From NCBI GenBank assembly GCA_003223645.1, contig QHVT01000007.1, positions 232,531 to 296,530 on the forward strand: a stretch of DNA of 64,000 nucleotides, in the 5' to 3' direction. Positions within the stretch are counted from its first letter, which is position 1; every line of letters starts with the position of its first letter. The stretch comes from Acidobacteriota bacterium. Lineage in GTDB: Bacteria > Acidobacteriota > Thermoanaerobaculia > Gp7-AA8. Of this stretch, positions 17,873-29,067 are shown one piece after another. The position numbers were made by a program, and so were the translations under genes. Below the pieces are notes generated by a model. That model ran no database searches, was not told the DNA's origin, and saw only the letters and a list, made by a program, of their open reading frames with translations.

Positions 17873-17967
17873 TGTGGTGACCGCTGCCCTCAGCGGTCAC
17901 AGCGCGGCCATGGCGGCGACGGCGGCGTTTGGCGCCGCCGCGACCGCTGAGGGCAGCGGTCGCCACA
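17873..17967. repeat. TGTGG..CCACA palindromic element, copy 2
   Basis: Arms as in copy 1 (2514-2609). It separates the convergent GGDEF and EAL genes, where it could act as a bidirectional terminator or transcript-end hairpin. Confidence 0.85.
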
Positions 17968-23272: not shown

Positions 23273-23472
23273 AGGCGAAAGGCAAAAGGGCAAAAGGTAA
23301 AAGTAGAATCCGTCGTCATCCTGAGGCGCATCGACGCCGAAGGATCTCGAAATTGCAGGCTCTTCGTAGTTTGAGATCCTTCGTCGCGCTTCGCCGACTC
23401 AGGATGACGCGGGAAATTTTCGACTTTTACCTTTACCCTTTTACCTTTTACCTTTTACCTTTGAGCTTTTGC
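23273..23472. repeat. Nested palindrome: AAAAGG word arms around a GTCATCCTGAG element
   Basis: The left arm has GGCAAAAGGGCAAAAGGTAA words; the right arm has CTTTTACC/CTTTTACCTTTT words. Between them is a GTCATCCTGAG..CTCAGGATGAC palindrome (23317-23407) with GAAGGATCTCGAAATTGCAG-type inner arms. It lies between rplY and the AhpD-like gene. Confidence 0.85.
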
Positions 23473-23473
23473 T

Positions 23474-24013
23474 ATGGCACGACTGACGAAGTTGACTAAA
23501 GACGAAGTCACGACCGACGTGAAAGAGCTGTACACCAACGTCGGCAAGCAGCGCGGCAACGTGCCGAACATGTTCCGCGTCTATGCGCACCGGCCGGAGA
23601 TCCTGAAAACGATGATCGCGCACATGAACGCGGTCACGAACACGGGAACCGTTCCGGTGCGGACGAAGGAGTTCGTGGCGACGCTGGTATCGCGCATCAA
23701 CGGCTGCGAGTATTGAAACCGCTCGCACACCGCGCAGGCTGCGCGGCACGGAGCGACGGACGAGCAGTGCGCGGCGCTGATGGAGTTCGAGAGCGGACCG
23801 TTCAGCGACGCGGAGAAAGCGGCGCTGGCATACGCGAAGCAGTTGACGATCGATGCGCACGCGATCGACGAAGCGCTGTTCGCGCGATTGCGCGCGCACT
23901 ACGACGAAGGAGAGATCGTGGAGATCTCGGCGATGGCCGGACTGTTCAACTACTTCAATCGCGTCAACGACGCGCTGCTGATGGAGCCGACGAAACCGGG
24001 AGAGGGACTGTGA
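23474..24013 (+). CDS. AhpD-like/CMD family protein, probable selenoprotein (in-frame TGA at codon 81)
   Basis: The frame continues unchanged through one TGA (23714-23716), giving 179 residues. The family's redox motif C-x-x-C-x-x-x-H appears as C78-E-Y-(TGA81)-N-R-S-H85, so TGA replaces exactly the resolving cysteine. Both sides match the carboxymuconolactone decarboxylase/peroxidase-related family: LVSRINGCEY before, and HTAQAARHGATDEQCAAL with GLFNYFNRVNDALL after. A SECIS-like hairpin follows. AhpD-like selenoproteins with CxxU are known from bacteria. A nonsense-mutated CxxC gene is the alternative; selA, selB and tRNA-Sec are not in the window. The next gene starts in the overlapping GTGA. 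Confidence 0.8.
23720..23755 (+). promoter_or_regulatory. SECIS-like stem-loop downstream of the in-frame TGA
   Basis: Lower stem CGCTC/GAGCG, internal loop, upper 7-bp stem CCGCGCA/TGCGCGG and a GGC apical loop at 23737-23739. The loop starts 21 nt after the TGA and opens with G, consistent with bacterial SECIS elements, in which the hairpin lies just downstream of UGA inside the coding region. High GC makes chance hairpins common, so this supports but does not prove recoding. Confidence 0.65.
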
Positions 24014-25122
24014 GGCGATTGCTCTGCTGTCTCATCGCTGCAGTCGGATTGAATGCGGCCGAGTTCAAAGGCGCGGTGCCGAACATCGCCGGTGACGGCT
24101 CCGGCGGATTCGTCGTCAGCTACATCGACGGCAACTCGTTCCGCTTCGTCTCGATTCGCGATGACAAAGTCTCGTCGCCGCGCGAGATCGCGAAAGGAAA
24201 TCTGCTCGTCAATCGCGCCGACTTCCCGTCGATCGCGGTCAACGGCAAAACGATGATGACATCGTGGCTGACGAAGAACGGACACGGCTCGATGATTCAC
24301 GCTGCGCGCTCGACGGACGGCGGCGCGACGTGGAGCGCGGCGAAGACGCCGCATCCGGCGATGGTGTCGGAGTTCGGGTTCGTGTCGCTCGATGCGAACG
24401 GTGACGCGATCTGGCTCGACGGACGCGGACTGAAAGGCGGCGTGGAAGGGGAGGGCGACATGGAGCTGCACTACGCCGCGTTCCCGTTTGCGAACGACGT
24501 CGCAATCGACAAACGCGTGTGTGACTGCTGCCAGACGGCGATGGCGATGACGAGCGACGGTCCGATCGTGGCGTATCGCGACCGCTCGGCGGACGAACTA
24601 CGCGACATCGCCATCGTGCGCCGCACGAAGTCGGGCTGGACATCGCCGAAGTTGATTCACGCGGATGGTTGGAAGATCGCCGGCTGTCCGGTGAACGGTC
24701 CGCAGCTCGATGCGAGCGGCAAGCGCGTCGCGATCGCGTGGTTCACCGCGGCGAACGACGAGCCGCGCGTGTATGCCGCGTTCTCGAGCGATACCGGCGC
24801 GACATTCAGCGCGCCGCTGCGCGTCGACGCGAACAAGGCATCCGGACACGTCGACGTCGTGCTGCTTTCCGACGCGTCGGCGGTCGTGACGTGGGTCGAA
24901 GTGCGCGGCGACAAGTCGATCGCGTTCGCGCGACGCGTGAATGTGGCGACCGCTGCCCTCAGCGGTCGCGGTGCCGCTGAGGGCAGCGGCACCCACATGA
25001 GTACGCCGGTGGAGCTCGGCGACGCGCGCGGATTTCCGCGCATCGCGGTTTCGAAGGAGAATGTCGGCGTCGTGTGGGCCGCGGACGATCGCGTCCACTT
25101 CAAGACCATCAAACTGCCATGA
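24010..25122 (+). CDS. Secreted BNR/sialidase-like beta-propeller protein with CDCC motif
   Basis: 370 residues from GTG 24010. Signal peptide (about 1-16) and six-bladed propeller-like repeats with Asp-box motifs STDGGATW (101-108) and SSDTGATF. A CDCC cluster at 171-174 is a feature of a sialidase-like family that need not cleave sialic acid. Catalytic sialidase residues were not identified. The ATGA overlap with a TlpA-like gene and the upstream AhpD-like gene suggest a redox-linked operon in which the cysteines are thiol-exchange or metal sites. A TGTGG..CCACA palindrome is translated in frame near residues 312-330. Confidence 0.7.
   Translation: MRRLLCCLIAAVGLNAAEFKGAVPNIAGDGSGGFVVSYIDGNSFRFVSIRDDKVSSPREIAKGNLLVNRADFPSIAVNGKTMMTSWLTKNGHGSMIHAARSTDGGATWSAAKTPHPAMVSEFGFVSLDANGDAIWLDGRGLKGGVEGEGDMELHYAAFPFANDVAIDKRVCDCCQTAMAMTSDGPIVAYRDRSADELRDIAIVRRTKSGWTSPKLIHADGWKIAGCPVNGPQLDASGKRVAIAWFTAANDEPRVYAAFSSDTGATFSAPLRVDANKASGHVDVVLLSDASAVVTWVEVRGDKSIAFARRVNVATAALSGRGAAEGSGTHMSTPVELGDARGFPRIAVSKENVGVVWAADDRVHFKTIKLP
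24942..24997. repeat. TGTGG..CCACA palindromic element inside sialidase-like gene, copy 3
   Basis: Shortened 56-bp copy with almost no central spacer, in frame with the host gene. Confidence 0.85.
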
Positions 25123-25673
25123 GGAAACTCTCTCTCCTTCTCTCACTGATTGTCGTGCTCGCCGCCTGCAAAGCGCGGGAGAACACTGTCGCGACGACAT
25201 CCGCGGAAGCGCCAAAGAAATCTGCGCCCGCGCAGACTGCGACAGGCACCGACGTCGGCGCGACGATGCCGGAGTATTCGGCGATGTGGCTCGACGGCTC
25301 GAAGTTCGAGCTCGCCAGCAAGCGCGACAAAGTCCTGCTGGTGAACGTCTGGGCCACGTGGTGCGCGCCGTGCCGCGAGGAGATCCCGGAGCTGCAGGCG
25401 CTGCACGACAAACTGAAAGCGAAGAACTTCGAAGTCCTCGGCGTCAGCGTCGACGACTCCTCGGCCGAGCTCGTGAAGCAATTCGTCGCCGAGCAGAAGA
25501 TGACGTTCCCGGTCGCGCTCGATCCGGAAGGAAAAATCGCGTCGATCCTCGACACCGGCGTGCTGCCGACGACGGTCCTGCTCGACCGCACCGGCAAGAT
25601 CCTCTGGAAACACTACGGCCCGATTCCGAAGAACGATCCGGAGCTCGAGCAGACGATCGCGAAGGCGTTGTGA
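25119..25673 (+). CDS. TlpA-like thioredoxin lipoprotein
   Basis: 184 residues. Lipobox LAAC with Cys17, a linker, then a thioredoxin fold with W-C82-A-P-C85 (in VWATWCAPC) and a cis-proline region GVLPTTVLLD. It is a periplasmic membrane-tethered thiol-disulfide oxidoreductase. The ATGA overlap with the preceding gene ties it to the propeller protein, whose CDCC motif could be its client. Confidence 0.9.
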   Translation: MRKLSLLLSLIVVLAACKARENTVATTSAEAPKKSAPAQTATGTDVGATMPEYSAMWLDGSKFELASKRDKVLLVNVWATWCAPCREEIPELQALHDKLKAKNFEVLGVSVDDSSAELVKQFVAEQKMTFPVALDPEGKIASILDTGVLPTTVLLDRTGKILWKHYGPIPKNDPELEQTIAKAL

Positions 25674-25675
25674 CC

Positions 25676-25775
25676 TCTCAGCCTCCTGGCCTCCCAGCCT
25701 CCTGGCCTCCAAGGCTCCGAGTCTCCGGAAAACGGTTCTCCAGGAGGCTTAGAGGCCAGGAGGCCAGGAGGCCAA
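25676..25775. repeat. CCTCCTGGCC word palindrome
   Basis: Left arm CAGCCTCCTGGCCTCCCAGC etc.; right arm AGGAGGCCAGGAGGCC. Spacer near CCGGAAAACGG. Fills the convergent gap after the TlpA-like gene. Same family at 52320-52394. Confidence 0.85.
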
Positions 25776-25964
25776 CTACGTGTGGCGCCGGTCAGGCGTG
25801 TCGCGCTCGGTGCGGCGGCGGTCGCGTTGCCGCTGGATGAACTCGCGGACGTTGCGCGCCATTTGTCCGACCAGCAGGCGCATCGGCAGGTAGGCCAGCG
25901 CGATCGAAAGCGCCAGCGCTACGGCCATCAAAAGGAAGAGAGCGATGAGAGCGATCGGTGACAT
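25776..25964 (-). CDS. Small single/two-helix membrane protein
   Basis: 62 residues: a long hydrophobic stretch (IALIALFLLMAVALALSIALAYLP, in two parts) followed by a highly basic, arginine-rich tail. No family recognised. The stop codon lies at the edge of a palindromic repeat. It could be a small membrane protein co-transcribed with the SGNH-like gene 15 bp upstream. Confidence 0.5.
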   Translation of the reverse strand: MSPIALIALFLLMAVALALSIALAYLPMRLLVGQMARNVREFIQRQRDRRRTERDTPDRRHT

Positions 25965-28946: not shown

Positions 28947-29067
28947 GCAACTTTGTGGCGACCGCTGCCCTCAGCGGTCGCGGCGGCGCTACGCGCCGCT
29001 GGCGCGGCCGTGAGGCGGCGCTGTGACCGCTGCGGGCAGCGGTCACCACAAAGTTGCTCAGGATGAC
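28937..29067. repeat. Composite palindrome: GTCATCCTGAG outer arms, TGTGG element core
   Basis: Outer arms GTCATCCTGAGCAAC and GTTGCTCAGGATGAC enclose a TGTGG..CCACA element (copy 4). It lies between convergent genes and supplies the stop codon of the glutaredoxin-PCD gene. Confidence 0.85.

What the first reader, a model, noticed from the sequence alone, without database searches (positions are those of the whole stretch)
23474..24013. AhpD-like gene with TGA at the resolving-cysteine codon and a SECIS-like hairpin
Both halves of the family are present in one frame, interrupted only by TGA at position 81 of the C-x-x-C-x-x-x-H motif, giving CxxU. A 7-bp plus 5-bp hairpin with a GGC loop begins 4 nt and peaks 21 nt after the TGA. 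Random nonsense mutation would rarely hit precisely this codon without other damage. It heads an operon with a CDCC protein and a TlpA thioredoxin, so a selenium-based thiol oxidoreductase system is plausible.
Basis: partly seen in the sequence, partly recalled or inferred. Interest (0 to 1): 0.75.

Follow-up and report, generated by a model that had tools for sequence, protein, structure and literature searches.

The report
AhpD-like selenoprotein with in-frame UGA
This gene of an Acidobacteriota bacterium almost certainly reads a UGA stop codon as selenocysteine in the active site of an AhpD-like redox enzyme, but AhpD-like selenoproteins with exactly this CxxU motif have been known since 2005, so it is a well-supported new member of a known family.

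Summary
In detail: 23474-24013 is one frame interrupted only by TGA at codon 81 (23714-23716), followed by a 5+7 bp hairpin with a GGC loop 20 nt after the TGA. The selenocysteine reading is strongly supported. The genome has selA, selB, tRNA-Sec(UCA) and a selD that itself carries an in-frame TGA. Ten other homologues (48-82% identical) have TGA at the same codon. The upper stem is paired in all 11 sequences, with compensatory changes at three pairs, and is the strongest peak of synonymous-site conservation in the gene. The one Cys-containing close homologue (TxxC) has lost the hairpin. All five AhpD proton-relay positions are kept and the model matches AhpD-like crystal structures (TM 0.89). 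The protein passes the cut-off of TIGR01926, which a 2026 review already lists as a CxxU selenoprotein family, first found in Sargasso Sea data. So: a real recoding event and a new member of a known kind. The 'selenium-based operon system' is weaker: a TlpA gene is a frequent neighbour, but TlpA and the CDCC protein begin with export-like sequences and the AhpD-like protein does not. Substrate unknown.

The parts
23474..24013 (+). AhpD-like (TIGR01926, CMD/PF02627) selenoprotein gene, 179 residues, ATG start, TGA stop at 24011-24013
   Evidence: homologues
23714..23716 (+). in-frame TGA, codon 81, Sec of the C78-E-Y-U81 motif
   Evidence: same codon TGA in ten close homologues, TGC in one
23720..23755 (+). 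bacterial SECIS-like hairpin: 5-bp lower stem, internal loop, 7-bp upper stem, GGC apical loop at 23737-23739
   Evidence: fits the published bSECIS constraints quoted in PMC13188914
24010..25122 (+). 'CDCC' BNR-like protein with a signal-like N-terminus, GTG start overlapping the stop of the selenoprotein gene (GTGA)
   Evidence: the BNR_2 match is below Pfam's cut-off
25119..25673 (+). TlpA/ResA-like thioredoxin-fold lipoprotein (WCAPC), ATG overlapping the previous stop (ATGA)
   Evidence: a homologue lies close downstream of the AhpD-like gene in five relatives

Best explanation
The gene encodes an apparently cytoplasmic AhpD-like thiol/selenol oxidoreductase in which the second residue of the usual CxxC is selenocysteine. 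SelB carrying Sec-tRNA(UCA) binds the hairpin just after the UGA and makes the ribosome read UGA as Sec (shown: all parts exist and the signal is conserved; inferred: that insertion happens). The protein then uses the C78/U81 pair, with E66, Y80 and H85 as proton relay, to reduce a peroxide or another small substrate through a selenenyl-sulfide cycle (inferred from the family; substrate and reductant unknown).
For: The genome has selB over cut-off, selA, tRNA-Sec with UCA anticodon, 69.9 bits against gathering 47 and selD with one in-frame TGA in GGUACK. TGA at the same codon in nine relatives found by genome search (48-82% identity) and in L054 (52%). Upper stem 100% paired in 11 sequences, three pairs changed on both sides, covariation 0.288 against 0.131 +/- 0.021 in shuffles, 0/500. 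Fourfold sites 94% identical in codons 86-92 against 47% on either side, the top stretch of the gene. The Cys homologue L035 lost the stem. Both halves of the protein stay similarly conserved (66-81% and 64-86%). Fold and active-site residues of AhpD-like proteins. CxxU AhpD-like selenoproteins, including TIGR01926, are published.
Against: No direct protein evidence. The same-genus genome G001 has no copy at E <= 1e-15, so the gene is not universal in the lineage. The enzymatic activity is inferred only.
Confidence: 0.96

Rival explanations
1. Pseudogene or sequencing/assembly error: a nonsense change in an ordinary CxxC AhpD-like gene.
For: A single TGA in one draft genome can be either.
Against: TGA at the same codon in ten separately assembled relatives; downstream half under the same constraint as the upstream half; hairpin covaries.
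Confidence: 0.01
2. UGA is read through as another amino acid (for example Trp), or by ordinary stop-codon readthrough, without Sec.
For: Readthrough would also give a full-length product; no protein data exist.
Against: The gene itself ends with TGA; full Sec machinery present; the position is Cys in CxxC homologues; SECIS-type stem conserved at the right distance.
Confidence: 0.02
3. Two separate proteins are made: an 80-residue N-terminal one, and the C-terminal part from an internal start (23780), with UGA as a true stop.
For: An ATG at 23780 opens a 77-residue frame.
Against: The split would fall inside the catalytic helix 79-91 of a single compact domain; the UGA and the hairpin would have no reason to be conserved.
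Confidence: 0.01

Closest known systems
AhpD-like selenoprotein, TIGR01926 / COG2128, CxxU (Sargasso Sea 2005, PMC1088965; GOS 2008 'AhpD-like 1', PMC2398784; review PMC13188914)
   Same: Same profile family (over cut-off), same Sec position (second residue of CxxC), bacterial SECIS after UGA
   Different: Here in Acidobacteriota (relatives titled Thermoanaerobaculia), with TlpA as a frequent neighbour; no difference in kind
NF053654 YciW-related (seleno)protein
   Same: Same length and layout, CxxU; some relatives in the same bacterial family carry both types
   Different: The window protein scores 94.7 against cut-off 310, so it is not a member; the members seen lack the His four residues after Sec (CEFUQDINAAVG)
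AhpD-like CxxC peroxidase-related proteins, e.g. Deinococcus radiodurans 6k40, PA0269 2o4d
   Same: Fold (TM 0.89 for 6k40) and the proton-relay positions described for PA0269
   Different: Cys instead of Sec

Membership tests
AhpD-like / TIGR01926 peroxidase-related | profile match over curated cut-off | tested here: met
   100.8 against 81.8 bits; TIGR00778 core 46 against 27.8; PF02627 61.3 against 23
AhpD-like / TIGR01926 peroxidase-related | CxxC(x3)H with upstream Glu and Tyr/His (proton relay as in PMC3141380) | tested here: met
   E66, C78, Y80, U81, H85; E66, Y80 and H85 invariant in 12 sequences, C78 in 11, position 81 Sec in 11 and Cys in 1
AhpD-like / TIGR01926 peroxidase-related | all-helical AhpD fold | tested here: met
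   model pLDDT 93.1; Foldseek to 2prr, 6k40, 3c1l with TM 0.84-0.89
AhpD-like / TIGR01926 peroxidase-related | peroxidase or AhpC-reducing activity | not testable with these tools
   needs purified protein
Bacterial selenoprotein | selA, selB, selD and tRNA-Sec(UCA) in the genome | tested here: met
Bacterial selenoprotein | in-frame UGA aligned with Cys of homologues and conserved | tested here: met
Bacterial selenoprotein | bSECIS: loop 3-9 nt, upper stem 4-16 bp, G in first two loop positions, 16-37 nt from UGA, MFE <= -7.5 (PMC13188914) | tested here: met
   loop GGC (3 nt), 7 bp, 20 nt, -11.1 kcal/mol for the upper stem alone
Bacterial selenoprotein | Sec physically present in the protein | not testable with these tools
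   needs 75Se labelling or mass spectrometry
NF053654 YciW-related (seleno)protein | profile match over curated cut-off | tested here: not met
   94.7 against 310 bits

The most novel reading that the evidence does not exclude
The Sec-containing AhpD-like protein and its TlpA neighbour form a dedicated redox couple of this Acidobacteriota lineage, with the selenoprotein working on an unknown substrate rather than as a peroxidase, so that the operon is a lineage-specific selenium-dependent pathway.
Probability: 0.1. Interest if true: 0.4.

Novelty: new member of a known kind. Interest (0 to 1): 0.22.

Why it matters
A tool-less reading of raw sequence found what is almost certainly a true selenoprotein that a standard gene caller would cut at residue 80 or start at an internal codon. 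The family is known; the useful extras are a clean SECIS covariation set and a Cys-containing relative that lost the SECIS together with the UGA.

Tried and rejected
Hairpin energy alone and the presence of a hairpin after a TGA do not distinguish this site; dropped as evidence. The second selB-like hit (C40:34848, 398 aa) has the size of EF-Tu and lies beside an EF-G-sized hit, so it was not counted as selB. The NF053654 'YciW-related (seleno)protein' label was tested and rejected for the window protein. Plasmid and phage collections hold only relatives below 60% identity. Presence of selA does not separate Sec from Cys carriers here, since nearly all relatives (138 of 147) have it. No paper joining Thermoanaerobaculia and selenoproteins was found in the library.

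Full report
Observation. The frame 23474-24013 translates to 179 residues with a single internal TGA at codon 81, between ...INGCEY and NRSHTAQAARH..., and ends with TGA at 24011-24013. The stop overlaps the GTG of a BNR-like protein with a CDCC motif, whose stop overlaps the ATG of a TlpA-like lipoprotein, so the three are probably one transcript (inference from the overlaps).

Is it more than chance? The hairpin by itself is not: z = -0.68 for the stretch, and about one TGA in ten in this G+C-rich window is followed by a stem at least as long in the permitted position (169 of 1651). Evidence must come from relatives and from the genome.

Genome. The window lies in a 6.38 Mb genome, 96.67% complete. 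It has selB (375 bits, cut-off 242.25), selA (473.7, cut-off 267.9), selD (373.9, cut-off 125) and a tRNA-Sec with UCA anticodon on contig 12 (69.9 bits, gathering 47). The selD gene itself has an in-frame TGA in the motif GGUACK.

Relatives. Among 147 related genomes, nine close homologues other than the window's own have one TGA inside (48-82% identity), always at the same codon of CxxU; one more came from genome contigs (L054, 52%). By record title they are Thermoanaerobaculia and other Acidobacteriota MAGs. One close homologue, L035, has TGC at that codon and Thr in place of the first Cys (TRYC). In L035 the hairpin is gone, although the protein around it is similar. More distant AhpD-like relatives, among them the NF053654 type, also have CxxU, mostly followed by stem-loops.

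RNA. In the 11 TGA-containing sequences the seven upper pairs are kept in every sequence, with changes on both sides at three pairs (G-C to U-A, A-U or C-G; C-G to U-A; A-U to U-A); the loop GGC is invariant. Covariation score 0.288 against 0.131 +/- 0.021, none of 500 shuffles reaching it; sliding the partner by 1-3 columns destroys it. RNAalifold finds essentially the same structure unaided. In the eight closest sequences, fourfold sites are 94% identical in codons 86-92, against 47% before and after; this is the highest stretch of the gene. The element meets each of the bSECIS constraints listed in PMC13188914.

Protein. TIGR01926 and the AhpD core model are passed, also PF02627. The five proton-relay residues of PA0269 and M. 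tuberculosis AhpD (Glu, Cys, Tyr/His, Cys, His; PMC3141380) are E66, C78, Y80, U81, H85 here. The AlphaFold2 model (pLDDT 93) matches 2prr, 6k40, 3c1l and other AhpD-like structures with TM up to 0.89.

Mechanism. Decoding by SelB and Sec-tRNA at the UGA-SECIS is near certain on genomic grounds. Catalysis through a C78/U81 selenenyl-sulfide with the H85/E66 relay is inferred from the family. The AhpD-like protein has no export signal, while both downstream products begin with signal-like sequences (read from the sequence; no signal-peptide program was run), so a direct electron path between them is not obvious. A TlpA homologue follows within the held flank in five relatives, the CDCC gene in one other (L030/L053, the same locus). 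The neighbourhood is thus conserved in part.

Comparison with the known. AhpD-like CxxU selenoproteins were found in the Sargasso Sea data (27 sequences, PMC1088965), in bacterial genomes (COG2128, PMC1794560), in GOS data (299 sequences, PMC2398784), and are listed under TIGR01926 in a 2026 review (PMC13188914). The window protein is a new member of that kind. I found no paper that names it in this lineage, which is a small extension of range.

Noticed in passing
24950-24989, also 2522-2601, 17881-17959, 28962-29042: A palindromic repeat with core CCGCTGAGGGCAGCGG occurs as paired arms (TGTGGYGACCGCTGCCCTCAGCGGTC...) 207 times exactly in the genome (0 for the reversed control). One copy sits in frame inside the CDCC gene and is absent from its 48% identical homologue in L053, so it looks like a REP/MITE-like element inserted into a coding frame.
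   Followed up: partly
L018 1402-2580 (- strand): The selD gene of this genome is itself a selenoprotein gene (in-frame TGA in GGUACK).
   Followed up: yes
L045 1501-2013 (- strand), also L046 and L039: Relatives in the same bacterial family carry another AhpD-like CxxU gene near NF053654 (296 bits against cut-off 310 for L045), with CEFU and no His four residues later.
   Followed up: partly
L035 1501-2037 (- strand): Close homologue with TRYC instead of CxxU, in a genome that has selA: Sec replaced by Cys together with loss of the first Cys and of the SECIS hairpin.
   Followed up: partly
23290-23460 and 25676-25790: Intergenic stretches with inverted and simple repeats (ATCCTGAG...CTCAGGAT palindrome with AAAGG/CCTTT runs; GGCCTCCCAGCCTCCTGG runs) on both sides of the operon.
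   Followed up: no
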